From Solibacillus palustris (GTDB lineage: Bacteria > Bacillota > Bacilli > Bacillales_A > Planococcaceae), in assembly GCF_022549215.1 (NCBI RefSeq), contig NZ_JAKZFC010000007.1:120130-184129 (forward strand): a stretch of 64,000 bases of DNA. Reading direction: 5' to 3'. Positions within the stretch are counted from its first letter, which is position 1. The number at the start of each line of letters is the position of its first letter. The position numbers and the translations under genes are program-made. The notes beneath the pieces are model-generated. The model was not told the origin of the DNA. It did no database searches and saw nothing but the letters and a program-made list of their open reading frames with translations. This document shows positions 51,135 through 64,000 of this stretch, in pieces.

Positions 51135-51569
51135 GTGGGCTTAGAAGGTTGGTTTTTATGGTTTATCGTATTTTGGGTATTTGCGTTAGTGGGACTTATG
51201 GGCATCGGAGGCTTCTTCATGTTCCGCAAGTTTTTAAAATCGCTTCCAAAACAAGATGGCAAATCCGATTTAGACTGGCAAAATATTTATTTAGATAAAA
51301 CGATTCATCTATGGGGTGAAGAGGAAAAAGAGTTACTTCGGGAGTTAGTGAGCCCTGTACCAGAGCTGTTTCGTCAGGTAGCAAAGGAAAAAATTGCGGG
51401 CAAAATTGGCGAAATTGCATTAACTGAACATGCAACGAAAATCAATATGGATTTAATCATTCGGGGCTATATTATCGCTTCACCAAAACGCGATCATAAG
51501 TTTTTACGCAAAAAATTAAACGAAATGAAAATCGATACAACCCCTTACAATCATTTATTTGAAGCATAA
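51135..51569 (+). CDS. yneK: DUF2621 family membrane-anchored protein (YneK-like)
   Basis: 144 residues: an N-terminal membrane helix (about 5-29) and a soluble, charged domain with LLRELVSPVPELFRQVAKEK, typical of DUF2621 (PF11084). In Bacillus subtilis the homologue yneK neighbours ccdA-yneI-ccdC, as here, but in this window it is convergent with them. Function unknown. AGAGGTGAG precedes the GTG start. Confidence 0.82.
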   Translation: MGLEGWFLWFIVFWVFALVGLMGIGGFFMFRKFLKSLPKQDGKSDLDWQNIYLDKTIHLWGEEEKELLRELVSPVPELFRQVAKEKIAGKIGEIALTEHATKINMDLIIRGYIIASPKRDHKFLRKKLNEMKIDTTPYNHLFEA

Positions 51570-51572
51570 AAA

Positions 51573-51614
51573 AGGTCTTGTCCGGAAAGTAATTTCTGGA
51601 CAAGACCTTTTCTC
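51573..51614 (+). terminator. Terminator of the DUF2621 gene
   Basis: AAAGGTCTTGTCC pairs with GGACAAGACCTTT, followed by TC-rich sequence; located directly after the stop codon. Confidence 0.85.
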
Positions 51615-51648
51615 CGCCCTAAAGCGGATAAATAATACAAGAACGAAG

Positions 51649-51686
51649 CACTGTCCAAAAAGTAATTACTTTTTGGACAGCTCCTT
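51649..51686 (-). terminator. CTGTCCAAAAAG hairpin, terminator of the ccd cluster
   Basis: CTGTCCAAAAAGTAAT and ATTACTTTTTGGACAG form a perfect 16-bp stem next to the end of the ccdC gene, with the same arms as the hairpin at 22971-22997. Confidence 0.75.
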
Positions 51687-51687
51687 T

Positions 51688-52179
51688 TTATGAAACAATT
51701 TGTGATTTCTCAAGCTTTTTGTATTTTATGAGCATGCCAATTCGCCAAGGTAACAGCATCGCGAATGCTAATATGAAGAACATTCCACCCAATTCGCCTA
51801 CATCAAAATTATCAGCAAATATTATTTTCATAATAATACGGAAAATTAATAATCCAATTAATATAAAAGGAAACGCTTTTGATTGCTTCATATAAATTGC
51901 GCCTTCACGTACTTCAAATTTTGACGTGGCAATTAATATCGTAGAGAATACTAAGCCTACCGCTACTGCTTCTAAAATTTGTGGAGGTGCAACACGAAAT
52001 TCCTCGAATAAAAACATCGATGCACCCGTTGACATGGCAATAGGTGGAATGAGTATTTTTTTTGCGTTTACTGGCTTTTTTTGTGCTCGTATGCGAATAA
52101 ATAACGCGAATGTTCCCATTGCTGCAGCCATTATCGTCGTACCTATTAATAAATAGTAAGCAGGTATGTTGTCAAACAT
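51688..52179 (-). CDS. ccdC: CcdC-like cytochrome c biogenesis membrane protein
   Basis: 163 residues with about five membrane helices (PAYYLLIGTTIMAAAMGTFA onwards). Layout and position match CcdC (YneJ) of bacilli, which works with CcdA in cytochrome c maturation, although its exact role is unclear. 12 bp downstream of the receiver-domain gene. Serves the cytochrome c at 21.2 kb, by inference. Confidence 0.85.
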   Translation of the reverse strand: MFDNIPAYYLLIGTTIMAAAMGTFALFIRIRAQKKPVNAKKILIPPIAMSTGASMFLFEEFRVAPPQILEAVAVGLVFSTILIATSKFEVREGAIYMKQSKAFPFILIGLLIFRIIMKIIFADNFDVGELGGMFFILAFAMLLPWRIGMLIKYKKLEKSQIVS

Positions 52180-52191
52180 CCTATTCCCCCT

Positions 52192-52572
52192 CTAATGTTG
52201 ACTGGAATATGTTAAGTTGAGGACGTTAAATGCAACCATTTTTAATTGCTCTTCTTGGAAAGGTTTCGTAATAAAATCCTTCGCGCCACTTTCAATTGCA
52301 GCCTTCACTTTTTTTTGCTGACCAAGAGCCGTGACCATAATTACCTTCGCCTCGACATCCTTTTCAACAATAATTTTCACTGCTTCAATCCCTGTCATAA
52401 CTGGCATCGTGATATCCATCGTGACAAGATCTGGTTTTAATTGGTCATATAATGCGACCGCTTCTTTTCCGTTTGCAGCCTCACCTATGACCTCAAAGCC
52501 CCATTCTTTAAACATATTTCCTATAGTGACACGCATAAACAGCGAATCATCGACAACTAAAACTGTTGGCAT
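52192..52572 (-). CDS. yneI: Single-domain response regulator (CcdB/YneI-like)
   Basis: 126 residues, a CheY-like receiver only: acidic pair in LVVDDSLF, phospho-acceptor Asp in VTMDITMPVMTG, Thr/Ser position in IMVTALG and Lys in FITKPF are all kept. In bacilli this gene lies between ccdA and ccdC and is called ccdB or yneI; the partner kinase and output are unknown. This is an intact receiver, in contrast to the Glu53 regulator at 20.2 kb. Confidence 0.9.
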   Translation of the reverse strand: MPTVLVVDDSLFMRVTIGNMFKEWGFEVIGEAANGKEAVALYDQLKPDLVTMDITMPVMTGIEAVKIIVEKDVEAKVIMVTALGQQKKVKAAIESGAKDFITKPFQEEQLKMVAFNVLNLTYSSQH

Positions 52573-52627
52573 TTAGCAATCACACCACTTTCCTTAGTAT
52601 AACACGTAGAAATTGCACACGAAACTA

Positions 52628-53338
52628 TTAGAACCCTGTAAAGCCTCCTAAAATTGAAGTAAAAATCGTGATGATGTATGTAAGTCCATCAAAGAATAAT
52701 AAAATTCCGACAGCAATCATAATATAGCCACCAATTTTCACGATTTTTTGACTATGCTCACGAATCCAGTTCATACGAGAGATGAAGAATGATAACGTAA
52801 AGAATGGGATTGCAAAGCCTAAATAATATGCAAGCATATACCACATCGCAGAATCAGGATTAGTCCCACCTAGCGCAATAATTGACATTAAAATCGGCCC
52901 TGTACACGGCGTCCAACCTGCCGCAAATGCTAAACCAATTAATACCGAACCAAAATAACCCGATGGACGATGTTTAAATTGAAATTTGCGATCCTTCATT
53001 AAAAAATCAAGTTGTAATAAGCCAACGATCATTAAGCCAAATGTCACGATTAAAATCGCCCCAATTTGGCGCATTAAGTCTTGATATTGCCAGAAAAACT
53101 CTTGTGCAAAGGAAGTACCAAAGCCAATCGCAATAAAAATAATCGAAAAACCAAGTAGGAAAAATAAAGTATGTAAGATAGCTCGTTTTTGCATCATCCC
53201 TCGCTCGCCTTTAAGTTCGTCTAACGTCATGCCGGTAATATACGACAGAAATGCAGGATAAAGCGGTAAGGTGCACGGCGAAATAAAACTTAAGAAGCCA
53301 GCACCAAACGCTAAGATGACATTTAAATCTGTGTTCAT
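52628..53338 (-). CDS. ccdA: Cytochrome c biogenesis protein CcdA
   Basis: 236 residues from the ATG at 53338 (GAGGGGGAT upstream); the open frame extends 14 codons further without support. Six membrane helices with the redox Cys in SPCTLPLYPAF (helix 1) and GWTPCTGPIL (helix 4). CcdA carries electrons from cytoplasmic thioredoxin to the outside to keep apocytochrome c thiols reduced. First gene of ccdA-yneI-ccdC. Confidence 0.95.
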   Translation of the reverse strand: MNTDLNVILAFGAGFLSFISPCTLPLYPAFLSYITGMTLDELKGERGMMQKRAILHTLFFLLGFSIIFIAIGFGTSFAQEFFWQYQDLMRQIGAILIVTFGLMIVGLLQLDFLMKDRKFQFKHRPSGYFGSVLIGLAFAAGWTPCTGPILMSIIALGGTNPDSAMWYMLAYYLGFAIPFFTLSFFISRMNWIREHSQKIVKIGGYIMIAVGILLFFDGLTYIITIFTSILGGFTGF

Positions 53339-53465
53339 GCTGCTCAAATCCCCCTCACATTGATGCATCAATCGTACCAAATTTTCACAAACATTACCCC
53401 TTTTTCGTTTGTGAACATTTTTTGTCAGGGAATCCCACCCTAACCTCCGTTATAGGTTGGGGATT

Positions 53466-53495
53466 GATTTGCGACGATAGCATAGCGACAGGAGC
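53466..53495 (+). repeat. GCGACAGGAGC repeat, first copy of a tandem pair
   Basis: GATTTGCGACGATAGCATAG followed by CGACAGGAGC. The related copy at 53565-53594 lies 99 bp downstream, and the core recurs at 19885-19912. Neither lies in a gene. Confidence 0.65.
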
Positions 53496-53564
53496 ACCGC
53501 ATCAAGCGGATTATAAACACTTGAGGGGCATTTTGTATAATAATCCCCAATTTTTGCACTTCCT

Positions 53565-53594
53565 GATTTGCGAAGATAGCACAGCGACAAGATC
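53565..53594 (+). repeat. GCGACAGGAGC repeat, second copy
   Basis: GATTTGCGAAGATAGCACAG followed by CGACAAGATC; five differences from the copy 99 bp upstream. Confidence 0.6.
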
Positions 53595-53611
53595 TCCATT
53601 TGCAGAAGCAA

Positions 53612-53998
53612 TCAACGAATCATATCAATTACAAAGAGGCTCGAATAGATAATCGATGTAAACACGATAACGATGACAATTGTGATCGTTTGAAAACGAA
53701 CTAGCCACCGCCAACAACTTTCTTCCGGGTGATTTTCCTTCCATTTCATAACAGCTTTAAAATTGATAAACCAGCAATGGAGCGTAATGATCAGTGACGG
53801 CACAGTGTACAATGCGAATAATAGTATCACTTGCTGCAATGTCGAAATTGAATACTTGCCATAGCTAATGATGAAGTAAGGTACGATAAACCAAAATACG
53901 GATGTAAAAATTAGCACAACCCCGACTAAAAAATGGAGCCACAAATATTCATGATGCGTTTGACGAAAATATTTTAATGCTATTTGCAAGCCCTTCAC
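53612..53998 (-). CDS. Small membrane protein, unknown function
   Basis: 128 residues with three membrane helices (about 20-45, 58-75 and 100-122) and an aromatic-rich loop with Cys-Trp pairs (HCWFINF, ESCWRWL). No family recognised. GAAGGGC precedes the start. Lone gene between repeats and a terminator. Confidence 0.65.
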   Translation of the reverse strand: MKGLQIALKYFRQTHHEYLWLHFLVGVVLIFTSVFWFIVPYFIISYGKYSISTLQQVILLFALYTVPSLIITLHCWFINFKAVMKWKENHPEESCWRWLVRFQTITIVIVIVFTSIIYSSLFVIDMIR

Positions 53999-54117
53999 CT
54001 ACTTTTTAGTTTACTATTCCCTGCATTTTATGTATTTAAAACAAGATTGGTGTATGAAATGTAAAGAGGTCATATATCTTGCGCTTCCAAATAACTGAAT
54101 AGAACAGCTTACATGCA

Positions 54118-54163
54118 AAAAGCCAAAAAACACGACAATAAAAGTGTTTTTTGGCTTTAGTAA
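54118..54163 (-). terminator. Terminator of the 54225 gene
   Basis: AAAGCCAAAAAACAC pairs with GTGTTTTTTGGCTTT, a 15-bp stem. Confidence 0.88.
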
Positions 54164-54224
54164 GTAGTTCCAAATTTTTATTTTTGGAACGCATTTTTTA
54201 CATTGGTTCAATTCAACGATTAAA

Positions 54225-54854
54225 CTAGCTATTGATTTCAAATCCTTCGACATTCACGATTTTTATACTAAAAGAATCACCAATGGATGATAATTTTAGT
54301 TCCATTGAATTTAAGAGTTGCTTCGCTTTCTGCTCTATTTCCAACGCTACCTTTTGTGCATGTTTATCCGAACCTTTTAAGGACGTTTGAATGATAATGT
54401 GTTGCTGCTGTACTGTACTAATATAATCTATTTCTTGGTAATCTTTAAGACCGATTATTAACGTTTCGAGCATCTGATGAGCTTCTTTGTTGATACCTCC
54501 ACTTAAATCGCTAATCCAATTAAATCTGTTTAAAACAATACTGTAATCCTTTAAAACCGTGCTTTTGATTTCACTTCTTACGAGCGATTCCATGTCCGCT
54601 TTAACAGAATTGAAATACGCTTCATCCCCCACTACTTGGATCACCAATTGATTGTTTGAGGTGGTTTTCACGTCAACACCTACATACCGTTCATGTAGTG
54701 TTTCAGCTATCATATTTAATGTAGCTTGTTCTAAAGAAATGAATGGTTTTTGAATGACTTCATGAGCATCTAATTCAGACGGGACTTTCAACAAGTACAA
54801 TAAGATTAAGCTCAATATGAATATTACAATAGCAATCCATATCTTTTTTAACAT
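54225..54854 (-). CDS. Membrane-anchored extracytoplasmic protein, DUF4030-like
   Basis: 209 residues: an N-terminal membrane helix (about 5-22) and a soluble outer domain made of repeated beta-alpha units with QLVIQVVGDEAYFNSVKADM and HIIIQTSLKGSDKHAQKVAL. The layout suggests DUF4030, a family of unknown function in bacilli; this is from memory and weak. AGGAGGC precedes the ATG. Single gene. Confidence 0.55.
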   Translation of the reverse strand: MLKKIWIAIVIFILSLILLYLLKVPSELDAHEVIQKPFISLEQATLNMIAETLHERYVGVDVKTTSNNQLVIQVVGDEAYFNSVKADMESLVRSEIKSTVLKDYSIVLNRFNWISDLSGGINKEAHQMLETLIIGLKDYQEIDYISTVQQQHIIIQTSLKGSDKHAQKVALEIEQKAKQLLNSMELKLSSIGDSFSIKIVNVEGFEINS

Positions 54855-54973
54855 ACGATGCCTCCTGTTAAAAAGATATGTCGTAAATTATCTAAAAAAC
54901 ACTTATATTGATGAAAGCTACGAAACGTTTTTAGGAAACGTTCCATCTTGAACAATGGCCTCCAAAACAAAAA

Positions 54974-55000
54974 TGATCACGAGACAATCCCGTGATCCTC
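54974..55000. terminator. Hairpin past the 55053 gene
   Basis: GATCACGAG and CCGTGATC pair around a short loop; on the minus strand it is followed by ATTTTTG. Confidence 0.55.
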
Positions 55001-55052
55001 CTCCAAAATCGCAGCATCTGACAATACAATTAAGTCATTGTTTATCCAGAAA

Positions 55053-55352
55053 TCACGAGTAAAATTCTTTTAATTTTCTTGGTAAGGTTTTATTCATAAT
55101 GAATCCTGCAAAAGCTAATCCGATCAAAATAAATATAATGGCCAAAACTTTATTTAACCAAGCTATTTGTATAATATCCGTTAGATTGGAACCCCCAATA
55201 ATTATTATCGCACCTACAGCCCACGCAAATAAGAATCCTAAGGTGTACTGTAACCATTCTTTTTTAGAAAGTTGCTTAAAAATCGCCTTATTTTTATAAA
55301 ATTTCATAATTGAGAAAATCAATAATAATCCTAACATTAAATTTCCAATCAC
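55053..55352 (-). CDS. Small membrane protein, unknown function
   Basis: 99 residues with three membrane helices (about 2-15, 34-53 and 66-86) and charged termini (TLPRKLKEFYS). No motif recognised. AGTGAGGGAT precedes the start codon. First of the small membrane genes typical of the right side of the window. Confidence 0.65.
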   Translation of the reverse strand: MIGNLMLGLLLIFSIMKFYKNKAIFKQLSKKEWLQYTLGFLFAWAVGAIIIIGGSNLTDIIQIAWLNKVLAIIFILIGLAFAGFIMNKTLPRKLKEFYS

Positions 55353-55435
55353 TACAATCCCTCACTTAGAAAGTTTAATTTTATTTAATTAATATTCTGC
55401 CATATACAACTTCATTTACCCTTTAAGAGTTACCA

Positions 55436-55475
55436 AATCGTCGTTTGGTAATCTTTCATGAAAGAATGTTATTCA
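55436..55475. repeat. CGTTTGGTAA short repeat
   Basis: CGTTTGGTAATCTTTCAT and AAAGAATGTTATTCAAC resemble 59092-59128 (CGTTTGGTAACCATTCAT, AAAGAAAGATGTTCAG). A short dispersed repeat associated with gene ends in this accessory region; it overlaps the end of the serine hydrolase gene. Confidence 0.55.
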
Positions 55476-56400
55476 ACAATTCTCTCTCATCCTGCCAACT
55501 ACCTAATAGCTCTTCGAAAATGAGTGCCGGTGCAGATTGCTGATCTTTTTGTAGATGGCTTTTTACCACCGCCATAATATTTAACTTCGGAACAATAAAT
55601 ATATATTGTCCAAATATGCCATTAGCATAGTAATAATCAATCGAGGTGTTAGTATTAGTATTTTCATAAGTCCATAGCTGATAGCCATATCCATATGTAC
55701 CTTCTTTTGTGGTTTTAGTTTGTTTATATGGTCTTTTTGCCTGAATGATCCAGTTGGATGATATCACCTGATTTGAATTAAATCGCCCTTCGTTTAAAAA
55801 TAACAGTCCAATCTTCACCATATCCTCTAATTTTAATGAAATACTAAAACCACCCCCGTGAATTCCTTGTGGATCCCTTTGCCAAGTGTATTTATTTATC
55901 CCTAATGGACAGAATAAATATTTTTCAGCAAATGAAGCGGTGGAAATTCCAGAAATTTTTTGTATTATCGCACTTAGTAAATGAGAGTCTCCAGAATTAT
56001 ATTGAAAGGTTGATCCTGGTTTATGTATAATCGGTTGTCCTAGTATGAATTTAACCCAATTTTTTGATCCTTGGAAATTCCCTACTTTTAACCCCGAAGT
56101 CATGGTCAGCAAATGAAATATTGTAATTTCTTTCTTTTGCGGATCATTAGACTCTAATATTTCTGGAAAATAGTTTTGAATGGGTTCGTGAATATTTTTT
56201 ATTAATCCCTTTTCTACCATAATTCCAATTAATATAGAAACAATGCTCTTTGTGATGGAATAAACCTTTGACGGCTTTTCTACGACCTTTTTATTCTTCA
56301 AGTATTCGTAGATCCTTGTATTCCCTTTATAGATGACAAAAGCTTCAATTCTAATACTTTTAAGTTTCTTTTCTAACTCATTAAAAGATATTTTACTCAT
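55456..56400 (-). CDS. Serine hydrolase of the beta-lactamase/esterase family
   Basis: 314 residues without signal peptide. The Ser-x-x-Lys motif is S48-I-T-K51 (KVYSITKSIVSILIG), the second motif YNSGDSHLLSA, and a late GGGFSISL block, as in PF00144 (class C beta-lactamase-like, 6-aminohexanoate-dimer hydrolase type). It hydrolyses amides or esters in the cytoplasm; resistance to beta-lactams is not implied. Stop region overlaps a short repeat. Confidence 0.85.
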   Translation of the reverse strand: MSKISFNELEKKLKSIRIEAFVIYKGNTRIYEYLKNKKVVEKPSKVYSITKSIVSILIGIMVEKGLIKNIHEPIQNYFPEILESNDPQKKEITIFHLLTMTSGLKVGNFQGSKNWVKFILGQPIIHKPGSTFQYNSGDSHLLSAIIQKISGISTASFAEKYLFCPLGINKYTWQRDPQGIHGGGFSISLKLEDMVKIGLLFLNEGRFNSNQVISSNWIIQAKRPYKQTKTTKEGTYGYGYQLWTYENTNTNTSIDYYYANGIFGQYIFIVPKLNIMAVVKSHLQKDQQSAPALIFEELLGSWQDERELLNNILS

Positions 56401-56779
56401 TCCTCTATTATCTCCCTTTCACAAACACCATACTCGAATTACCATATGTATTCAATTTTTCAAGGGATTATTCCTCCATTAAATGGCCCTTTAATGAAAA
56501 CCGGCGCAGATCCTTGTTACAGAATTGTACCCGATCGTTGAATATTTACCATTTTTTAGCTGTATGGCGTAAATGAAGGGATAATCCAATATATAAGCTT
56601 ATTGCTTTTCTGATATCATCCACATTTATTTCATTATTTCTGACAAATTAACTTAAGTATATTCTCCAGTCCTTTCAGATTTATGTAATTATGTTATTGT
56701 GACATTATTATCTTATTCTTGAGTAAACATTCATCAAAAGATAGTATATAGTTTGGGATATAATTAGGAAGGAGACAAC
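56401..56779. other. Intergenic region with degenerate cassette repeat and a promoter
   Basis: 56470-56540 resembles the cassette repeats (CATTAAATGGCCCTTTAATG, then GGCGCAGATC...GAATTGTACC), strongly decayed. The right part holds the promoter of the MFS gene. Confidence 0.5.
56719..56747 (+). promoter_or_regulatory. Promoter of the MFS transporter gene
   Basis: TTGAGT (56719-56724), 17-bp spacer, TAGTAT (56742-56747). A perfect TATAAT also occurs at 56758-56763 but is close to the ribosome site. Confidence 0.45.
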
Positions 56780-57949
56780 ATGGATAAGCGTATTTATTTT
56801 TTAATGATTCTATCCTTTATAATAGGTCTGGTTGAACTGATCATTAGCGGGATTTTAGATTTGATTGCAGAGGATTTACATGTAAGCATCGGCCAAGCAG
56901 GTTTGCTGATCACTGTTTTTGCTGTCATTTTTGCAGTTACATCGCCAATTTTACTTGTCATGACAGCTAAAATAGAAAGAAAAAGGCTAACATTAGTTTG
57001 CTTGTACATTTTTTTAATTGGTTGTATCGTAACAGTATTTGCACCTACTTTTTCTATTTTGTTTATAGGAAGAATTATATTAGCATTAAGTGGAGCGCTA
57101 TTAATCATATTGTGTTTAGTTATGGCTCCTAGCTTAGTAGAAGAACAGTATAGAGGTAGGGCTATTGGGATCGTCTCTGTGGGAGTAAGTGCTTCGTTAG
57201 TTTTAGGGGTACCGCTCGGGCTTATCATCGGAGATAGTTTTGGCTGGAGAGCACCATTCGTACTGATAACTATTTTAACAGCATTATCAATTATTGGGGT
57301 TCATGTATTAATGGGAAGAATACAACCGAAACCTCAAATTCCGTTGAGGAATCAGCTTTTAGCATTTAAAAATCACAAAACCACATTAGGGCTAACAACG
57401 ACATTCTTCTATATGACAGGCCATACGATTATGTATGCCTATTTTAAGCCTTATTTAGAAGCGACCACTGATTTTAATGCTACTTGGATTAGTGTCATCT
57501 ATTTCATTTTCGGTTTTTCTGCTGTAATTGGTGGAGGTCTTGGCGGTGTAATGGCAGATTTATTGGGATCAAGAAAAACAATGATTATTGCCCTAGTCGT
57601 ATTTAGCGCTTTATTCTTTATATTTCCATATTCAACAGATTCATTTCCAGTATTTCTTATCATAATTATCATTTGGGGGATTCTCAGTTGGGCGATTTCG
57701 CCGGCTATGCAATCTTATTTAATTGAAATAGCGCCTGAATCATCGGAAATTCAGCAAAGCTTGAATAATTCAGCTCTTCATTTAGGTGTTGCTGTTGGTT
57801 CAGTGATTGGGGCTGGAATTGTAGATACACTATCAGTTGAAGTAAATCCATTTGCAGGTGGAATATTCATCATTTTATCATTCATTACTGTCATCATTTC
57901 TATTAGCAGTAAGAAAAAAACAGCTTATAATACAAAGAGCGCAATTTGA
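56780..57949 (+). CDS. MFS transporter (DHA1, sugar/drug efflux type)
   Basis: 389 residues with twelve membrane helices. The loop between helices 2 and 3 is TAKIERKRLTLVCLYIFLIG, and motif C-like GVPLGLIIGDSFGWRAPF follows, as in arabinose-efflux-like DHA1 transporters. It exports small molecules using the proton gradient; substrate unknown. GGAAGGAG precedes the ATG. Lone plus-strand gene among minus-strand genes. Confidence 0.88.
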   Translation: MDKRIYFLMILSFIIGLVELIISGILDLIAEDLHVSIGQAGLLITVFAVIFAVTSPILLVMTAKIERKRLTLVCLYIFLIGCIVTVFAPTFSILFIGRIILALSGALLIILCLVMAPSLVEEQYRGRAIGIVSVGVSASLVLGVPLGLIIGDSFGWRAPFVLITILTALSIIGVHVLMGRIQPKPQIPLRNQLLAFKNHKTTLGLTTTFFYMTGHTIMYAYFKPYLEATTDFNATWISVIYFIFGFSAVIGGGLGGVMADLLGSRKTMIIALVVFSALFFIFPYSTDSFPVFLIIIIIWGILSWAISPAMQSYLIEIAPESSEIQQSLNNSALHLGVAVGSVIGAGIVDTLSVEVNPFAGGIFIILSFITVIISISSKKKTAYNTKSAI

Positions 57950-57985
57950 GATATTTCAAGTTGCGCTCTTTTAATGTATATCTCT
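57943..57985 (+). terminator. Terminator of the MFS gene
   Basis: AAAGAGCGCAA pairs with TTGCGCTCTTT, overlapping the stop codon region. Confidence 0.85.
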
Positions 57986-58077
57986 TTTCCTACACGGTAG
58001 TTTTAGCTGAAACTGGACTTAATTCTAATAAAAATGCAGATTTAAAGCGTTAATAAATTTTCTATAAATACAGGTTT

Positions 58078-58200
58078 TTATTCAGATAACACACCTGCAG
58101 CGTTTTCTGCAAAATCTTGAAAAGTCTTATTGTAGCTATGTTTATATACCTTAGCATAAAAAGCTGTATAAATAATATTCAAAGGAAAAGCCACGAAAGG
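58078..58200 (-). pseudogene. Possible C-terminal gene remnant
   Basis: About 40 minus-strand codons read FVAFPLNIIYTAFYAKVYKH, then SYNKTFQDFAENAAG and VLSE, ending TAA at 58080. The text looks like real protein, but the frame closes upstream and a continuation (FWNTEKAKKCCEINLSWLF) appears in another frame. No family recognised; a decayed gene is the best reading. Confidence 0.35.
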
Positions 58201-58261
58201 TTGATTTCACAGCATTTCTTAGCTTTTTCTGTATTCCAAAACTTTTATTTGGGAACGTTTT

Positions 58262-58993
58262 TTAATTTTCTAATGAATAAATATGATTGTGCTGTTGTGA
58301 TGATTTTAATTTTTTATAAAGGAAAATTGAATAAGTAACTAAGATTGCAAGAATCACAAATGTAAAAATATCGTCACCATCTTTAGAAGCCAGAACAATA
58401 AAAGTATTATTGATCCCATGGAATAATATTGTAACTATTAACGGTTGTCCTAATGCGATTAATAGAGCTAAAACCATACCAGTCGAAAATGCGTAGCTTA
58501 TTTGGATAATTGTACTCAACAAGTCTTGACCACCAAGAAGTTGTAAAGAATGGGTTATTGCAAATAAAAGGCTTGATACTGTAACCGCAAGTATAATCCC
58601 ATTTCCTCTTAATACCGATATCATAAATCCTCTATAAATCACTTCTTCTATAAAGGCAATAATAAGTATATGAGTTATCATTACTAAAATTACATTCGAA
58701 TAATCCCCTAAACTAAGCCCACCATTTCCTAGGTATAAAATTATTAAAATAATTAAAAGTGGCATTGAATATAATAATGTTTCTTTTACTGAACGAGTAG
58801 AAAATAGGTTCAATGCTGTTCGACTTTTTTTAGAGAATAATAAATAACCGTATAACAATAAAGCAAATGGTACTAAGCCCAAATAGGAGAGAAACGGATC
58901 GTTAGTGGAAGTTATTGAAACATACGCACCATTGACAATAAAAAACGCTAAGACGAGAAATTCTAAACCAATTACTTTCAAAAATGGTTTCAT
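58262..58993 (-). CDS. CPBP family intramembrane metalloprotease
   Basis: 243 residues with about eight membrane helices. The catalytic EExxxR motif is EEVIYRGF, followed by FAITHSLQ and HGINNTF, the three motifs of CPBP/Abi proteins (PF02517). In other bacteria such proteins process peptides or give self-immunity to bacteriocins. No bacteriocin gene is seen nearby. Stand-alone gene in the accessory region. Confidence 0.9.
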   Translation of the reverse strand: MKPFLKVIGLEFLVLAFFIVNGAYVSITSTNDPFLSYLGLVPFALLLYGYLLFSKKSRTALNLFSTRSVKETLLYSMPLLIILIILYLGNGGLSLGDYSNVILVMITHILIIAFIEEVIYRGFMISVLRGNGIILAVTVSSLLFAITHSLQLLGGQDLLSTIIQISYAFSTGMVLALLIALGQPLIVTILFHGINNTFIVLASKDGDDIFTFVILAILVTYSIFLYKKLKSSQQHNHIYSLEN

Positions 58994-59091
58994 ATATTAC
59001 GCCACATCCTCGTTGTTATAAATTGTAAATATTTTACTGAAAATATTATACACCATTAAATTATTTGAGAGGAAAAGAAATATTCCAAAAG

Positions 59092-59160
59092 CATCGTTTG
59101 GTAACCATTCATAAAAGAAAGATGTTCAGTAAAATGGCCCTATTCATGAAGTAAGGGCAC
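59092..59160 (-). repeat. Degenerate cassette repeat with CGTTTGGTAACC edge
   Basis: CGTTTGGTAACCATTCAT edge, then GTTCAGTAAAATGGCCCTAT and TGAAGTAAGGGC, a decayed relative of the repeats at 60-64 kb. It lies downstream of the 59293-60264 gene. Confidence 0.5.
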
Positions 59161-59292
59161 AATTTTTACTGCAGAAATGCGCACTTTAACGGAAGATAGT
59201 TTTGAATATCTATGCTGCAGAGATACTATAAAAGTCATTTCAAATGAAATAAGGCTGGTAAAAACATTTTTAAGATTCGCATGAAATAAAAA

Positions 59293-60264
59293 TCACAAAG
59301 CTCTTCTATCCCAATCTACATTTTTCAATTCAGGAGCAATTAGAAGTAACTCCTTTATGTTCGCAATTTTATCTCCATGTCTCTTCCAAGCTTTCACCAC
59401 TTTTGAACTACAATTATGAAGGCCCCAGATTGATAATAGATATAAAGATAATCCATATTTATTTAATTTATGCTGATACTGAATAGCTAAGTTAAATACT
59501 CTAACACTTTCTTCATGCATGTTAAGTCTGGTTAATGTACAACCTAAATTATTTAAAGCTACTGTAATAGAACGCTTTGTAAGGCGGGAACTGTTTAATT
59601 GCTCCCAACTGCCTAAAACAAAGGGATCACTCTCCATTGGAATAAGTGAATCATCGAGTATTTCTAAGAGCTTATGATTAATCAAATGAGCAATTTTTTC
59701 CGATGACTCTTTGATCAATTCTTGTTCTTCTAGTTTAGAAGCTTTTTCTAATAGAAACGAATAATAGGTTAATTCTGCAAAAGGATTGTTTTCCCATTCA
59801 CTGTCCTCTTGTATCAAGTCCAACATATTAATAAGGGGGACATCAATGCTTGAAAACTTCTCCAAGCTTAAAAGAGAAGAGACTGCTGCACGATGACTTT
59901 CAAATCTTACTCCTCTGTTACTTTCGTTTCTTAAAGAATGCTCACATGCATATAAGTACCAGTCATACCATTCTTCAAAATAATTACCTAATGATAATGT
60001 TAAAGATTGTGTGCCATCCGAAACAAACCAGTGCAGTTTATCAGGAGCTAAAGTTATCTTTCCCCATTTAACAAATTCACAGTGAATCTCATATTCTTGG
60101 TGGGGTTTACGCATGATAGCAAGCCTATCGGAAATGTTCCAATATACCCATGCTTTTTCTTCTACTGTGAGTGTTCTGTTGTTACGAAATTCTTCTAATA
60201 GCACTAAGATTTCCTCATTCTTTTCATCTGCTAGTAATTGATTGAATTTCTCATAAATGTTCAA
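59293..60264 (-). CDS. Helical protein of unknown function, TPR-like
   Basis: 323 residues, no signal or membrane segment. Mostly alpha-helical; the C-terminal third (VALNNLGCTLTRLNMHEESV, then FNLAIQYQHKLNKYGLSLYL) resembles a tetratricopeptide pair, and Trp-rich segments (EEWYDWYLYACEHSL) occur in the middle. No enzyme motif. GAAAGGTTG precedes the ATG. Gene content suggests accessory function such as a scaffold or an immunity protein; both are guesses. Confidence 0.6.
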   Translation of the reverse strand: MNIYEKFNQLLADEKNEEILVLLEEFRNNRTLTVEEKAWVYWNISDRLAIMRKPHQEYEIHCEFVKWGKITLAPDKLHWFVSDGTQSLTLSLGNYFEEWYDWYLYACEHSLRNESNRGVRFESHRAAVSSLLSLEKFSSIDVPLINMLDLIQEDSEWENNPFAELTYYSFLLEKASKLEEQELIKESSEKIAHLINHKLLEILDDSLIPMESDPFVLGSWEQLNSSRLTKRSITVALNNLGCTLTRLNMHEESVRVFNLAIQYQHKLNKYGLSLYLLSIWGLHNCSSKVVKAWKRHGDKIANIKELLLIAPELKNVDWDRRAL

Positions 60265-60397
60265 CGAATCAACCTTTCTTTAATAAAAATACCAGTACTA
60301 TTAGTATAAAAATGAACAACAGCAATTTATATTGTTTATATACTTTAGCTGCATAGCAGTTTCCATTTTTTATAAATTCTATATCTAAAGTGAATGT

Positions 60398-60460
60398 CCT
60401 TCTTCAATTAACTGGCCCTTTAGCTAAAGAAGGCGCAATTCTTTTTCAAGAATTGCGCCC
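60398..60460 (-). repeat. Cassette repeat R8: palindrome plus GGCGCAATTCTT hairpin
   Basis: Palindrome CCTTCTTCAATTAA / TTTAGCTAAAGAAGG around CTGGCCC (60398-60433), followed directly by a perfect 12-bp hairpin GGCGCAATTCTT / AAGAATTGCGCC (60432-60459). The palindrome tips are changed in step with each other relative to other copies. Confidence 0.8.
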
Positions 60461-60495
60461 TATAACGAAAAGACACGCATTTTTACATGAGTGTC

Positions 60496-60564
60496 TTAAT
60501 TACAGTTTATAGAATTTTGCATATAAATTTTAGAAATTTCTGATGCCAATGACTTTAAATTCAA
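60496..60564 (-). CDS. 22-codon small ORF or N-terminal remnant
   Basis: AGGGGGGAT precedes a TTG start (60564) followed by 22 codons beginning NLKSLASEISKIYMQN and ending INCN; a GACAC/GTGTC hairpin with TTTT follows at about 60468-60494. Either a real small peptide or the 5' end of a deleted cassette gene. A strong ribosome site and a terminator make it more than chance. Confidence 0.4.
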   Translation of the reverse strand: MNLKSLASEISKIYMQNSINCN

Positions 60565-60612
60565 ATTTATCCCCCCTATATATCTTTGTATTTATAACAA
60601 ATCCTAACAATT

Positions 60613-60712
60613 CTTTTCTTCAACTAATCTGCGTCTTTAGTTCAATAAAGAAATAAAGAGCTGCATATGCAACTCAATGACCTTCAAGTAAAGCTCCCGT
60701 TAGTTTAACAAG
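60613..60712 (-). repeat. Cassette repeat R7 (complete)
   Basis: First palindrome CTTCAACTAAT / CTTTAGTTCAATAAAG around CTGCG (60618-60650), terminator hairpin GAGctGC-atat-GCaaCTC (60658-60675) with T-rich flank on the minus strand, second palindrome CTTCAAGTAAAG / CGTTAGTTTAACAAG (60682-60712). It follows the 60750-61037 gene. Confidence 0.85.
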
Positions 60713-60749
60713 AAAATAACTTAATTCTTTATCTTACTTCCCAATATTC

Positions 60750-61037
60750 TTATATGAATTCAAACGCAAACATTAAACCTAAAGGGATAGTTAACCAAAG
60801 CAGAGAATTACTCAATATTATTTTAAAATGAGAAGCATTTTCTAATTTGTCTTTGGAAACGAATCTCCACATCAGTAGTACTCCAAAAGCCCATATCGGT
60901 ATGACTAAAAAGAATTCTGGTGTCAAAGTATCAGATTCACCTAATGCCCCTTCTGCAAAAAACCAAGAAATAAATAATGCAACAAAACCAGTAAATATAA
61001 CATTACCTATAACTAAAACTTTTTTATCATTCAACAA
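60750..61037 (-). CDS. Small membrane protein, second of a pair
   Basis: 95 residues with three membrane helices (about 8-28, 42-58 and 72-93) and a short charged loop VSKDKLENASHF. No motif recognised. The gap to the preceding gene is 11 bp and contains GGAGGG, so the two form a bicistronic cassette. Followed by repeat R7. Confidence 0.65.
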   Translation of the reverse strand: MLNDKKVLVIGNVIFTGFVALFISWFFAEGALGESDTLTPEFFLVIPIWAFGVLLMWRFVSKDKLENASHFKIILSNSLLWLTIPLGLMFAFEFI

Positions 61038-61048
61038 AATCCCTCCGA

Positions 61049-61312
61049 TTACTCGAATAACGAAACATCATTTAACTTTTTTACGAAATTTAAAATCCAC
61101 CTTATAACTCCAATCACCAGAATGAGAATACCATTAGCTATTGTTATAAATCCTAAAAATGCCCCACCATAGCCTGCACCTTCTCCTGTTCCCCCAGAAC
61201 TCCAATTGTAAAAATGAAGAAATACAGCCCCACTTGAAAAACCAATCACTGGAGCAAGTACCATCATAATGATGCCCGATACCATAAGATTTAATATTCC
61301 TTTTCTAAACAA
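61049..61312 (-). CDS. Small Gly-rich membrane protein, first of a pair
   Basis: 87 residues: two membrane helices (about 7-30 and 50-72) joined by a Gly/Ser-rich loop NWSSGGTGEGAGYGGAF. No family recognised. Co-transcribed with the next gene. The glycine-rich loop is unusual; a bacteriocin-like or holin-like role is possible but unsupported. Confidence 0.65.
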   Translation of the reverse strand: MFRKGILNLMVSGIIMMVLAPVIGFSSGAVFLHFYNWSSGGTGEGAGYGGAFLGFITIANGILILVIGVIRWILNFVKKLNDVSLFE

Positions 61313-61407
61313 CGTTAAGTGATACTAAGATCAAGACATATAATATCAAAATTAAATTTCCCACAATCCCCCCCTCGCTTCATTTTACCATAATTAACCA
61401 TAATATC

Positions 61408-61525
61408 AGTTTAACTATTCTGACTTTTAATTGAGTAGCAACAATCTTTTTGAAATCAGCCTAAGAAAAAGATGGGATCTCTATGGAATCCCATCTTGAA
61501 GTAAAGCCCCCTTTAGTTTAATAAG
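61408..61525 (-). repeat. Cassette repeat R6 with a different terminator
   Basis: A decayed first palindrome (AGTTTAACTATTCTGACT, 61408-61435), an unrelated terminator hairpin AAGATGGGAT / AATCCCATCTT (61467-61497) with T5 on the minus strand, then the standard second palindrome CTTGAAGTAAAG / CTTTAGTTTAATAAG (61495-61525). It follows the 61551-61832 gene. Confidence 0.75.
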
Positions 61526-61550
61526 AAATCATTCGTTGAACCTTAGATTT

Positions 61551-61832
61551 TTACATAACTATTTGATTAGTTATTAATCCTAAAATTACAAACCCAACAA
61601 TAAAAGCACCTATGTGAATTAAAATCTTATATCTCAACTTAATTTTTAACAAGAAATATAACCTAAAGGTGAAATAAATTATTATCAAATCAATAGGTGT
61701 CTTAATCAGTGAAACAGTAAATTTATTATTGATATGGAACTGTTCATAAATAAAGTCCCTAAAAAAAGAATTATTTGCTAAAGCAATCATAGAAAAAACG
61801 ACTTGATAAACAAAAAACTTAAAAAGGTTCAC
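61551..61832 (-). CDS. Small basic membrane protein
   Basis: 93 residues from a GTG at 61832 (GGGGAG upstream). Three membrane helices (about 3-18, 40-58 and 70-90) and a basic loop LKIKLRYKI. No motif recognised. Single-gene unit followed by repeat R6. Confidence 0.6.
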   Translation of the reverse strand: MNLFKFFVYQVVFSMIALANNSFFRDFIYEQFHINNKFTVSLIKTPIDLIIIYFTFRLYFLLKIKLRYKILIHIGAFIVGFVILGLITNQIVM

Positions 61833-61912
61833 ACAATTCCAACTCCCCTATAATCCAATCTTGATTATATTCTTGTTTTACTTCTCCTAAAGTATTGTTT
61901 TACTAATTATTT

Positions 61913-62008
61913 GTTATTCAACTATCCTGCCCCTTTAGTTCAATAAGAAAAAAGAGCTGCCTAAGCAACTCAATGTTCTTAAAGTAAAGCCCCCGTTAGT
62001 AAAATAAG
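61913..62008 (-). repeat. Cassette repeat R5 (complete)
   Basis: First palindrome GTTATTCAACTATC / TTTAGTTCAATAAG around CTGCCCC (61913-61947), terminator GAGctGCctaaGCaaCTC (61954-61971) with A6/T6 flank, second palindrome 61978-62008 (loop AGCCCCCG). Confidence 0.88.
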
Positions 62009-62031
62009 AGGGGAGTCAAATTTATGCAGAT

Positions 62032-62150
62032 TTACAACGATAAGACTTCAATTTCATTCATGGTATTTAAGTCTTTTTCCAAACTTTGATTTGTGAACTT
62101 TATTAGGTTTATTAATGTATACGTTATAAATCCATGTTTTACTAAAACAC
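62032..62150 (-). pseudogene. C-terminal remnant of a cassette gene
   Basis: About 39 minus-strand codons, open into the repeat fragment at 62145: GVLVKHGFITYTLINLIKF, then TNQSLEKDLNTMNEIEVLSL and TAA at 62034. Protein-like, but the 5' part is absent and replaced by a half repeat, so a recombination or deletion has fused a repeat to the tail of a gene. Confidence 0.45.
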
Positions 62151-62215
62151 CGTTAGTTGAAGAAGAAAAGTGAAGCGTATGCAACAATCGCGCCCTTATG
62201 TGGAACAAAAAATTC
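62143..62215 (-). repeat. Cassette half-repeat R4b
   Basis: ACTAAAACACCGTTAGTTGAAGAAG remnants (CCGTTAGTTGAAGAAG at about 62150-62165) followed by GTATGCAACAATCGCGCCC; only the second palindrome's right arm is clear. Confidence 0.45.
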
Positions 62216-62237
62216 TATACTAGTTTAGAAAATCCCT

Positions 62238-62491
62238 TTAACTATCTACTCTTTGCGGGTTTTGCCAGTATATAAAGCCATCCTTAGAATAAGTTCGACT
62301 CATTCCTATCTTTTCAAGGACTCTTATTGACGCTACATTCTCTTCAGCACACTCCGCGACTATTTTATCAACCTGGTTGGAAGAAAGGGCCCAATCTTTA
62401 AGTGTGGCCCCATTTCATACTTATCAGAAAAAGCATTATAGCTCTCCGCAGTACAAGGAACGATTAACAAACGATCAGTTTTGATTTCCAA
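62238..62491 (-). pseudogene. GNAT acetyltransferase gene with internal deletion
   Basis: Starts at a TTG (62491) after GGGAGGAAT: EIKTDRLLIVPCTAESYNAF, the normal start of a RimJ/RimL-type acetyltransferase. After YEMGPHLK the reading jumps, in a different frame, to SSNQVDKIVAECAEENVASI and RVLEKIGMSRTYSKDGFIYW, the C-terminal part. Roughly the middle 70-90 residues with the acetyl-CoA site are missing. A dead cassette gene between repeats R4 and R4b. Confidence 0.85.
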
Positions 62492-62551
62492 ATTATATTC
62501 CTCCCAATTTTAATTAATTTTACCATTTAAAATCTACAGATTCCATTACTG

Positions 62552-62648
62552 CTTATTGAACTAAACTGCCCCTTTAGTTCAATAAAAAAAGAGCTGCCTA
62601 AGCAACTCAACGATCTTCGCTAAAGCCCGCGTTAGTTTAAGTGAAAAG
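62552..62648 (-). repeat. Cassette repeat R4 (complete, clearest copy)
   Basis: First palindrome with perfect 13-base arms CTTATTGAACTAAA / TTTAGTTCAATAA around CTGCCCC (62552-62586), terminator GAGctGCctaaGCaaCTC (62591-62608) with T7 on the minus strand, second palindrome CTTCGCTAAAG / CGTTAGTTTAAG (62615-62641). It follows the 62651-62875 gene. Confidence 0.9.
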
Positions 62649-62650
62649 TT

Positions 62651-62875
62651 TCACAATCTACACATTTTATGTAATAACGTTTTTACTAATAGTATCAGAA
62701 AAATAATCAGAAACAGCATTACAATAGAGAATAGATACATTCCTAGTCCTGCCCAAACTCCTTCCTCAAATTCTTCTATAATATTATCAAGATTAAAGAT
62801 AAGCTTGATAACAAAGTTTGAAATAAAAATAAATGCGGTCAAGATAGCAGTGTCTTTTATAATCTTCAATGTCAA
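62651..62875 (-). CDS. Small membrane protein
   Basis: 74 residues from a TTG at 62875 (AAGGGTGG upstream). Two membrane helices (about 9-27 and 46-65) with an acidic loop NLDNIIEEFEEGVW and a basic C-terminus LLHKMCRL. No family recognised. Followed 3 bp later by repeat R4. Confidence 0.6.
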   Translation of the reverse strand: MTLKIIKDTAILTAFIFISNFVIKLIFNLDNIIEEFEEGVWAGLGMYLFSIVMLFLIIFLILLVKTLLHKMCRL

Positions 62876-63035
62876 TAATCCACCCTTTTTTTACTATTCA
62901 ATTTAATGTTGTCCACTTAACTGACTATACGTCCTAATAAACTCTCTAAACGAATATCCTCTTTTATTATACAAGTTTGATTTTTTTATTAAATATTGTA
63001 AATGGTTTAAAATTACTCCAAACGAAATATACTTG

Positions 63036-63070
63036 CTTATTGAACTAAACTGCCCCGTTAGTTGAATAAG
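63036..63070 (-). repeat. Cassette repeat R3: hybrid palindrome without terminator
   Basis: CTTATTGAACTAAA, CTGCCCC, GTTAGTTGAATAAG: the left arm is that of the first palindrome and the right arm that of the second. The terminator between them is absent, as expected from recombination across the shared CCCC loop region. Confidence 0.85.
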
Positions 63071-63091
63071 AGAAACAATGATTTAACTATT

Positions 63092-63364
63092 CTATTCAAA
63101 TAAATTAGTCGAAAAAATACCAACAACAATTAACAAAGATATGCTCCAAAATATTAAACCAACAAAACGGTTATTGAGTGCATAAATCGTCAATCCAAGA
63201 GAAGGTAAGTATAAAGCGATAGCTATAAGCATCATAGGATTGAGTAAAGTCCCTTGAAGCCAATGTTCATTTAACTCATAATTCACTTTAATAAGTAAAG
63301 CAGCTACTACACTTAGAATTATAGCAATGATTCCACTTAAAGAACGTTTTGCTACTCTCATCAT
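63092..63364 (-). CDS. Small membrane protein
   Basis: 90 residues with three membrane helices (about 8-26, 42-60 and 67-87) and basic N-terminus MMRVAKRSL. GAGGTGAAG precedes the ATG. No family recognised. It lies between repeats R2 and R3. Confidence 0.65.
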   Translation of the reverse strand: MMRVAKRSLSGIIAIILSVVAALLIKVNYELNEHWLQGTLLNPMMLIAIALYLPSLGLTIYALNNRFVGLIFWSISLLIVVGIFSTNLFE

Positions 63365-63379
63365 TCTTCACCTCAATTA

Positions 63380-63473
63380 CTTCTTAAACTATCCTGCTCC
63401 TTTAGTTCAATAAAAAAAGGAGCTGCCTAAGCAACTCAACAATCTTCACTAAAGCCCCTGTTAGTTGAATAAT
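63380..63473 (-). repeat. Cassette repeat R2 (complete)
   Basis: First palindrome CTTCTTAAACTATC / TTTAGTTCAATAAA around CTGCTCC (63380-63414), terminator GGAGctGCctaaGCaaCTC (63419-63437) with T7 on the minus strand, second palindrome CTTCACTAAAG / TGTTAGTTGAATAAT (63444-63473). It follows the glyoxalase-type gene. Confidence 0.88.
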
Positions 63474-63482
63474 AAAAGAATC

Positions 63483-63845
63483 TTAAATTTCTTTAATAAT
63501 CTCTACTCTGTTTCCAAAAGGGTCTCTAAACTCAAAACGTTCAAAATTTGGAATTGGTACTGAATCTAATATTTTTATATTATTTTCCATCAATACTCTT
63601 CTCCAATATGATACATCTTCTACCTGGTATGCTAAGTGGGCTTTCGTTGTTAATCTATTAAAGCCATCTTCTGTACCTACATGCACCTCTTTATCACCAA
63701 CTTGTAACCAAAAGCCCCCTCTTCCTTGAAGTGAAATTGGCTTTTCAATTTCTTCTAGTTTCAATACATTACAATAAAAATTCTTACCTTCCTCTTCAGC
63801 ACCTTTTGGAATAGTTATCTGTGCGTGATGTAATCCAAGAATCAT
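63483..63845 (-). CDS. VOC family (glyoxalase/bleomycin-resistance-like) protein
   Basis: 120 residues, a single vicinal-oxygen-chelate unit pair: GLHHAQITIPKG with the first metal His, KEVHVGTEDGF, KAHLAYQVEDV and a terminal FEFRDPFGNRVEIIKEI. Such proteins are metal-dependent enzymes or binding proteins for small toxic molecules. AGGGGGTATC precedes the ATG. The gene lies in the repeat-separated array and is followed 10 bp later by repeat R2. Confidence 0.88.
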   Translation of the reverse strand: MILGLHHAQITIPKGAEEEGKNFYCNVLKLEEIEKPISLQGRGGFWLQVGDKEVHVGTEDGFNRLTTKAHLAYQVEDVSYWRRVLMENNIKILDSVPIPNFERFEFRDPFGNRVEIIKEI

Positions 63846-63946
63846 ATAGATACCCCCTAAGTATTAAAACTATTTCTTATCTTTATTGTACTTTATAATA
63901 TATATATTTCAAATTATGTATTATTTATGTAAACTCATTATTATTT

Positions 63947-64000
63947 CTTAATGAATTAAACTGCTTCTTTAGTTCAATAAGAAAAAAGAGCTGCATACGT
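63947..64000 (-). repeat. Cassette repeat R1, cut by the right edge
   Basis: First palindrome CTTAATGAATTAAA / TTTAGTTCAATAAG around CTGCTTC, then AAAAAAGAGCTGCATACG..., the start of the terminator hairpin. It shows that the array continues beyond the window. Confidence 0.8.

What the first reader, a model, noticed from the sequence alone, without database searches (positions are those of the whole stretch)
60398..64000. Cassette-like array: small genes separated by a composite palindrome-terminator-palindrome repeat
Seen: six minus-strand genes or gene pairs, and several decayed ones, are each followed by the same composite element (R2, R4, R5 and R7 complete; R1 cut by the edge; R3, R6 and R8 variants). 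Each complete copy has a 35-bp palindrome (arms like CTTATTGAACTAAA, loop CTGCCCC), a GAGctGC...GCaaCTC terminator, and a second palindrome with loop AGCCCCYG. Inference: gene plus repeat behaves as an exchangeable cassette, giving a terminator-insulated unit that can be shuffled at the palindromes, by analogy with integron cassettes but with different sites.
Basis: partly seen in the sequence, partly recalled or inferred. Interest (0 to 1): 0.8.

Follow-up and report, generated by a model that had tools for sequence, protein, structure and literature searches.

The report
Gene-cassette arrays carrying their own recombinase
The end of this bacterial sequence holds part of a long row of small interchangeable genes, separated by short palindromic sites at which two strains of one species differ in gene order, and these genes are likely cut out and rejoined there by a recombinase enzyme whose own gene sits in the same kind of row; this looks like an integron-type gene-capture system in Gram-positive bacteria, where integrons are very rare.

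Summary
Window 60398-64000 has 13 copies of a ~33-bp core site, all on the minus strand; shuffled DNA gave 3 per 925 kb. The genome and relatives hold hundreds of such sites in one-way arrays. Homologous units in different places stop matching at the core spacer (about AACTAA^CGGGG^CAG). Between two strains of one species, 3 of 39 core flanks keep their neighbour, against 28 of 32 points in a flank chosen as colinear. A Xer/XerA-like tyrosine recombinase lies inside such arrays, with a core on both sides in 35 of 54 loci, and its near clade co-occurs with arrays in 151 family genomes. Best reading: a gene-cassette system that likely works by double-strand core-site recombination, integron-like in behaviour but not an integron (integrase score far below cut-off; no common attC-like fold). 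Cassette exchange is strongly supported; the recombinase's role is inferred from position and co-occurrence. No reaction has been observed, and some array-rich genomes lack the recombinase.

The parts
59104..59173 (-). core-like site with GGGCCA spacer (type M); colinearity with the same-species strain G001 stops inside it at 59150
59293..60264 (-). 323-aa gene, no Pfam or NCBIfam match; the unit around it (about 59179-60418) recurs at 91-92% in related genome G007, next to an element
60399..60432 (-). core site, GGGCCA-spacer variant
60616..60648 (-). R core
60658..60675 (-). terminator hairpin of a mini-unit
60682..60711 (-). L core
60750..61037 (-). 95-aa ORF of a two-gene unit; no family match; pieces of the unit recur in G007
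61049..61312 (-). 87-aa ORF of the same two-gene unit; no family match
61469..61497 (-). terminator hairpin next to an L core, with no R core behind it
61494..61524 (-). L core
61551..61832 (-). 93-aa ORF, no family match
61914..61947 (-). R core
61954..61971 (-). terminator hairpin of a mini-unit
61977..62006 (-). L core
62136..62164 (-). solo L-type core
62170..62550 (-). decayed gene unit; the same unit, longer by about 200 bp, lies in an array of G001 (98.7% and 96.6%)
62552..62585 (-). R core
62591..62608 (-). terminator hairpin of a mini-unit
62620..62641 (-). L core
62651..62875 (-). 74-aa ORF, no family match
63036..63070 (-). solo R core between two gene units
63092..63364 (-). 90-aa ORF, no family match; whole unit recurs in own genome contig C33 at 91% (88.9% including the flanking cores)
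63380..63413 (-). R core
63420..63437 (-). terminator hairpin of a mini-unit
63448..63472 (-). L core
63483..63845 (-). 120-aa glyoxalase-family gene (PF00903); whole unit recurs in an array of G001 at 97.5%
63947..63981 (-). R core, followed by an element cut at the contig end

Best explanation
This is part of a gene-cassette array: small genes and ~60-bp terminator pieces separated by ~33-bp core sites, which are likely excised and reinserted by a Xer/XerA-like tyrosine recombinase encoded inside such arrays. Shown by comparison: the units are bounded by cores, they lie in different orders in two strains of one species, and the change-over falls at the core spacer (about AACTAA^CGGGG^CAG). 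Shown by position: the recombinase gene lies between two cores, like any other unit, in most loci examined. Inferred: the recombinase binds the two inverted arms of a core as double-stranded DNA, exchanges strands in the asymmetric GC-rich spacer, releases units as circles, and inserts them at other cores; the asymmetric spacer keeps units head to tail; the terminator mini-unit insulates neighbours. Inferred: arrays face away from the replication origin through selection for co-directional genes, through limits on excision as in sedentary chromosomal integrons, or both.
For: Core specificity: 784 cores in fetched stretches of three genomes (925 kb) against 3 in the same length of shuffled DNA. 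Change-over point: 288 pairs in 53 families share the gene end but not what follows; 257 pairs in 50 families share the gene start but not what precedes. In the first set identity holds to position -1 (0.96), falls to 0.61 at +5 and to background (0.38 against 0.36) at +11; in the second it is little above background at -7 (0.41 against 0.28) and +2 (0.64 against 0.62) and 0.92 at +5, where background is 0.41 (position 0 is the first base after AACTAA). In one same-species example the shared sequence ends at ...CTTCAACTAAC. Neighbour loss within a species: 3 of 39 and 2 of 47 core flanks keep their neighbour, against 28 of 32 points in a flank chosen because it is colinear. Ends of homologous blocks lie in an element in both genomes for 24 of 41 (G0-G1), 55 of 140 (G0-G7) and 48 of 78 (G1-G7); a random point of an array is in an element 7.5-9.3% of the time. 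Recombinase: PF00589, catalytic R-K-H-R-H-Y present; a core within 350 bp upstream in 46 of 54 loci, downstream in 40, both in 35, in the near clade 80-91 bp before the start and, with one exception, 52-66 bp after the end; 71 of 77 related loci carry the element model built only from the own genome; genome-level co-occurrence of the near clade with ten or more elements 23/2/13/113, Fisher p = 6.5e-16. R-core inner arm TATGG: 21 of 69 R cores in loci of the more distant clade, 1 of 249 in the near clade (61 of the 77 loci).
Against: No excised circle or recombination reaction has been seen. Strain G001 has arrays but no recombinase match above the level of ordinary XerD. 13 of 36 genomes with ten or more elements lack a near-clade recombinase (2 of the 13 have a distant-clade one), so arrays may be partly relics or served in trans; and of 16 genomes with a distant-clade recombinase only 2 have ten or more elements. 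The near-clade count includes fragments. The cut-offs (10 elements, 82% identity) were chosen after seeing the lists. In the own genome only 2 of 18 PF00589 loci have an element within about 1.5 kb: the intact gene and one decayed copy; the truncated near-copy and four other short or decayed fragments have none. The stretch between two cores shows weak linkage to both neighbours (about 0.2-0.3), so which core is cut in a given event is not settled. Three of 56 loci (L063, L082, L084) have the recombinase and no core. The core profiles were trained partly on these loci. Site-recombinase covariation may only reflect common descent.
Confidence: 0.82

Rival explanations
1. Repeat-mediated homologous recombination: the elements are dispersed terminator repeats, and RecA-type exchange between ~100-bp repeats shuffles the genes with no dedicated enzyme.
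For: Elements are numerous and alike (mostly 80-94% to the window's copies); 13 of 36 array-rich genomes lack a near-clade recombinase.
Against: Change-over is confined to the core, and occurs at solo cores where little more than AACTAA and part of the spacer is shared. Cores bracket the recombinase gene, and array-rich genomes are enriched for it.
Confidence: 0.08
2. A true integron variant: the composite is an attC-like site folded from single-stranded DNA, the cassette is gene plus composite, and the recombinase is an IntI.
For: The two halves are roughly inverted copies; the recombinase faces against the array with an R core next to its start in the near clade, as intI and attI do; orientation away from the origin resembles sedentary integrons. 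Outer-arm pairing is slightly above shuffles (79.2 against 77.6%, reached by 14 of 500; covariation score reached by 10 of 500), within what the tool says unstructured related sequences can give.
Against: Integron integrase model TIGR02249 89.4 bits against cut-off 265; K-to-H spacing 66 residues. No excess complementarity of outer arms within an element or across a cassette. No consensus fold. Crossovers at both cores and at solo cores. Recombinase in several places, also in sense orientation.
Confidence: 0.06
3. MITE-like elements: the composite (and its recombinase-bearing long form) is a transposable unit that inserts behind genes; genes do not move.
For: The recombinase sits between the L core/terminator and the R core in the near clade, like a long form of the composite.
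Against: Gene units themselves recur in other places with changed neighbours, and 318 of 784 cores have no composite.
Confidence: 0.04

Closest known systems
Integrons, especially sedentary chromosomal integrons
   Same: One-way arrays of small, often unknown genes bounded by recombination sites, shuffled within a species, linked to a tyrosine recombinase; GNAT and Nudix genes the most frequent families here (their frequency in integrons is recalled); orientation tied to replication (passages of PMC8946536 seen; abstract of PMC11023631).
   Different: Sequence-conserved cores of two inverted arms and a short spacer instead of folded attC; recombinase not IntI; recombinase carried as a unit, in several copies or none; several arrays per genome; terminator as a separate mini-unit. 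IntegronFinder 2.0 found one complete integron and a few CALIN in Firmicutes (passages of PMC9024848); PMC8618304 lists Firmicutes among phyla with integrons (one passage).
dif modules (pdif/XerCD) of Acinetobacter plasmids
   Different: Those use the host XerCD and dif-like sites on plasmids; here a dedicated recombinase lies in the arrays, sites are in direct orientation, arrays are mainly chromosomal and long. A dif sequence of B. subtilis (recalled) gave 0 matches in 6 genomes at 3 mismatches.
Simple (Xer-like) tyrosine recombinases, XerA/XerC/XerD
   Same: Domain build and catalytic residues; best solved relatives by sequence 4a8e, 1a0p, 5hxy and by fold 5hxy XerA.
   Different: Below the XerC and XerD cut-offs (199.7 of 335, 204.9 of 330), just above NF040815 XerA (222.1 of 220); multi-copy in some genomes, up to 95% identical across genera, placed in cassette arrays.
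MIC231-type mobile insertion cassettes of Bacillus cereus (recalled, not searched)
   Same: Mobile gene cassettes in Bacillus.
   Different: Moved by an IS231 transposase at its terminal repeats; no core-site arrays (recalled).

Membership tests
Integron | IntI integrase with its specific catalytic-domain insertion | tested here: not met
   TIGR02249 89.4 bits, cut-off 265; K-H spacing 66. The larger IntI spacing is recalled; that integron integrases carry an insertion, not fully conserved, is from passages of PMC8138268.
Integron | attC sites: conserved fold rather than sequence, outer and inner arms pairing | tested here: inconclusive
   No consensus fold in 51 sequences; no excess outer-arm complementarity in 59 elements or 44 neighbour pairs; weak excess for outer pairing. 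Core sequence is strongly conserved.
Integron | single platform: intI plus attI at one end of the array | tested here: not met
   Recombinase inside arrays, with elements on both sides in many loci; most own-genome arrays have no intact one nearby.
Integron | cassette is one gene plus its attC | tested here: not met
   Interior of the composite weakly linked to either neighbour; 318 of 784 cores stand alone.
Integron | cassettes excised as circles by the integrase | not testable with these tools
   needs reads or an assay
dif module | pdif/dif-like sites used by XerCD | tested here: inconclusive
   One recalled dif sequence searched: 0 of 6 genomes. XerCD action on the cores was not tested.
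dif module | neighbouring sites in alternating orientation (recalled) | tested here: not met
   710 of 731 neighbouring cores in the same orientation.
Xer/XerA-like simple tyrosine recombinase | core-binding plus catalytic domain with R-K-H-R-H/W-Y | tested here: met
   PF00589 and PF02899; residues 138, 162, 228, 231, 254, 263; R, K, first H and Y in 38 of 38 rows, second R and second H in 37 of 38.
REP/RAYT repeats | linked RAYT (IS200-like) transposase | not tested
   -

The most novel reading that the evidence does not exclude
A third, independently evolved gene-cassette platform besides integrons and dif modules, native to Bacillales: double-strand core sites, a dedicated Xer/XerA-type recombinase that travels as one of its own cassettes, and terminators that are themselves cassettes. 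It supplies large, strain-variable gene reservoirs (over a hundred and in some genomes several hundred sites), also on plasmids, in a group where integrons are very rare.
Probability: 0.65. Interest if true: 0.92.

Novelty: new variant of a known kind. Interest (0 to 1): 0.86.

Why it matters
Integrons are described as extremely rare in Firmicutes (passages of PMC9024848). If confirmed, a cassette system of comparable size exists there under other rules: 75 of 151 sampled genomes of the family have at least one element at E<=1e-5 and 36 have ten or more. It would explain strain-to-strain turnover of small unknown genes in this group, give a sequence-defined way to list cassette genes, and make a question testable: what a cassette platform needs, if it does not need folded single-stranded sites and a fixed integrase locus.

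Tried and rejected
attC-like folding was my first idea. The complementarity test was negative and RNAalifold gave no pair, so I dropped it as the main reading, although one search shows a small excess. The linkage test was first run against a genus-blind background and repeated with genome-matched pairs, because the first gave inflated linkage of the interior. In one search most pairs that shared an upstream flank shared only the element interior, so the count was redone on gene flanks alone. The class 'no second core 40-80 bp away' (388 of 780) still holds composites with one undetected half; removes these (74) and leaves 318 of 784 solo. Rfam search gave one chance-level match. B. subtilis dif pattern: 0 matches. 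Phages: no match. Promoter-like sites in the window are at shuffle level (21 against 22.1), so nothing is said on promoters. The AlphaFold model is only moderate (pLDDT 77.7, pTM 0.54); fold matches are used as support only. Literature: ten searches; no listed row described such arrays in Bacillales. Only the top rows were seen where more papers matched (for example 15 of 314), and the library holds open-licence papers only, so this is not proof of absence.
Full report
WHAT IS THERE. Window 60398-64000 is the visible end of an array that runs off contig C40. A core is two inverted arms around an asymmetric GC-rich spacer: L type AACTAA-CGGGTGC-TTTA(C/G)TT, R type AACTAA-CGGGGCAG-(G/T)TTAGTT (51 picked elements, mostly from named genera). 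L and R cores commonly enclose a terminator hairpin whose pairs covary (85.7% of cells paired, 0 of 500 shuffles reach it). In fetched stretches of three genomes there are 719 core-to-core units up to 4 kb: 200 of 40-80 bp (172 of them L to R), 41 between 80 and 200 bp, 469 of 200 bp or more with median 765 bp; neighbouring cores point the same way in 710 of 731 cases. Of 784 cores, 392 have a partner 40-80 bp away, 74 have none but lie in a near-full element match, and 318 are solo.

WHERE IT IS FOUND. The own genome has arrays on contigs C1, C7, C9, C10, C12, C33, C39 and C40, several of them at contig ends. In 151 genomes of the family, 75 have an element at E<=1e-5 and 36 have ten or more (the search counted at most about 27 per genome). 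Four closed genomes searched more deeply gave 114-150 matches each, the search scoring at most 150 candidates. Several family genomes coincide in coordinates with named records of Psychrobacillus, Paenisporosarcina, Lysinibacillus and Viridibacillus (inference), so the family is the one that holds these genera (Psychrobacillus is placed in Bacillaceae, Caryophanales, in the taxonomy held here). The window's genus is not named. Elements also lie on 18 of 72,556 plasmid records, including a 6-kb Sporosarcina plasmid with one ASCH-domain gene bounded by an R core and a composite, and on none of 50,697 phage records.

UNITS ARE EXCHANGED AT THE CORES. G001 is a strain of the same species with a closed chromosome. 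Array stretches of G000 and G001 share cassette-sized blocks, mostly above 92% identity, in scrambled order. Of the window's own units, the glyoxalase unit (63475-63947) and the decayed unit (62170-62550) match G001 over their full length in an array, the 90-aa unit matches contig C33 of the own genome, and the 323-aa unit matches G007; the 74-aa and 93-aa units gave no match there. At the window's own place, colinearity with G001 runs from 50494 to 59150, with three inserts in the window, and stops inside a core-like site; no element but one partial match was found in the 20 kb beyond in G001. Over all cores tested, the upstream flank of G000 was found in G001 for 39 of 238 cores and only 3 kept the same downstream flank; the reverse gave 47 of 161 and 2; against G007, G001 gave 0 of 47 and G000 3 of 51. 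Control points in the flank already known to be colinear: 28 of 32. Only fetched stretches were compared, and both cores of a composite count.

THE EXCHANGE POINT. Pairs of cores that share the gene end but not the sequence beyond (288 pairs, 53 families), and pairs that share the gene start but not the sequence before (257 pairs, 50 families), place the change-over between the last base of AACTAA and about +5 in the spacer, with a weaker tail to +10 on the gene-end side. One direct case: the same gene end in G000 and G001 is identical through ...CTTCAACTAAC; G000 then continues into the recombinase unit and G001 into other sequence. Linkage of element positions agrees: left-arm columns 4-12 go with the upstream gene (0.74, 95% interval 0.62-0.83) and not the downstream one (0.04); right-arm columns 87-102 go with the downstream gene (0.65-0.68) and not the upstream one (0.08); the interior is weakly tied to either (43 and 48 pairs).

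THE RECOMBINASE. Eighteen places in the own genome match PF00589, 17 over the cut-off. One intact 279-aa gene (contig C12, locus L013:7271-8110, minus) lies in an array. A truncated near-copy (L014:3010-3480) lies about 2 kb past an element, and of the 18 places only the intact gene and one decayed copy have an element within about 1.5 kb. Of 77 named loci of close relatives, 71 carry the element model that was built only from the own genome. In 54 loci with enough flank, out of 56 examined of the 77, a core lies within 350 bp upstream in 46, downstream in 40 and on both sides in 35; in the near clade at 80-91 bp before the start and, but for one locus, 52-66 bp after the end. Sequence outside these cores differs from locus to locus, so the recombinase gene is itself a unit. 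It faces against the array in the near clade and with it in the distant one. Near-clade recombinase, whole or fragment, and ten or more elements: both 23, recombinase only 2, elements only 13, neither 113; of 16 genomes with a distant-clade recombinase 2 have ten or more elements (thresholds chosen after viewing). Two intact copies in G007 are 99% identical to the own one. Inner arms of R cores differ with recombinase clade, which fits co-evolution or shared descent. The protein family is large: 1019 proteins at E<=1e-40.

ORIENTATION. In six closed genomes, 212 of 231 listed copies and 48 of 56 arrays point away from the replication origin, taking the point opposite dnaA as terminus and, for four genomes, rounded lengths (origins). 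Two of the genomes have dnaA far from position 1, and their arrays switch accordingly, with 5 of 52 copies of one against the rule. Most of the exceptions lie near the assumed terminus, where GC skew sides with the elements in the two genomes looked at. Against an ordinary 75% co-orientation of genes (assumed), the array count is only modestly unusual (p = 0.04). Sedentary integrons show a similar bias (passages of PMC8946536).

CARGO. In 242 intervals the longest ORF runs with the element in 217, against it in 20, and is absent in 5. The 217 ORFs fall into 165 families. Of 150 scanned, 11 match a GNAT and 7 a Nudix model, with methyltransferases, glyoxalases and others behind; a few match defence-associated models, mostly one member each. 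Of six ORFs scanned in 60398-64000, five have no match, as has the 323-aa gene.

MECHANISM, KNOWN AND INFERRED. Shown: units, boundaries, within-species shuffling, recombinase between cores, co-occurrence of the near clade. Inferred: the recombinase acts on these cores, as double-stranded DNA, through excised circles. Against it: arrays without an intact recombinase (G001 and others), few elements with distant-clade recombinases in this family, three recombinase loci without cores, and no direct observation of a reaction.

NOVELTY. It fails tested integron features (IntI score and spacing, single platform, gene-plus-attC unit), and dif modules differ in orientation pattern and recombinase source. 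None of the papers listed in ten searches describes it in what I saw. I file it as a new variant of tyrosine-recombinase cassette systems and keep open that it is a platform of its own.

Noticed in passing
after R cores at unit starts, e.g. L190:27-69; window 59104-59173 and 60399-60432 have the related GGGCCA spacer: A 44-bp motif with its own core-like palindrome and GGGCCA spacer (type M) follows many R cores; 192 profile matches, both strands counted, at the third round. It may be a second site class for another recombinase.
   Followed up: partly
many units, e.g. the core at L017:14027: A recurrent leader (TTTAGTGCAACAAGGAGTACCTTC...) opens many units after an R core, and a recurrent end (...TGTGAAGAAATGTACTTAAACTAAC) closes others before a core.
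   Followed up: no
window 54960-55481, 56498-56590 and 58000-58146: Three inserts of about 520, 94 and 148 bp are present in G000 and missing from the colinear place in G001.
   Followed up: no
window 58030-58280: A short repeat with many matches among the 16 genus genomes.
   Followed up: no
L190 (NZ_CP146249.1) 1-720: A 6-kb Sporosarcina psychrophila plasmid with a MobV relaxase carries one ASCH-domain gene bounded by an R core and a composite; the 266-kb plasmid of the same strain encodes a 94.6%-identical recombinase.
   Followed up: partly
window 39932-39960: A single L-type core stands alone outside the array.
   Followed up: no
L212:3285-3305: One IMG/VR contig holds an exact match to the R-core pattern.
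   Followed up: no
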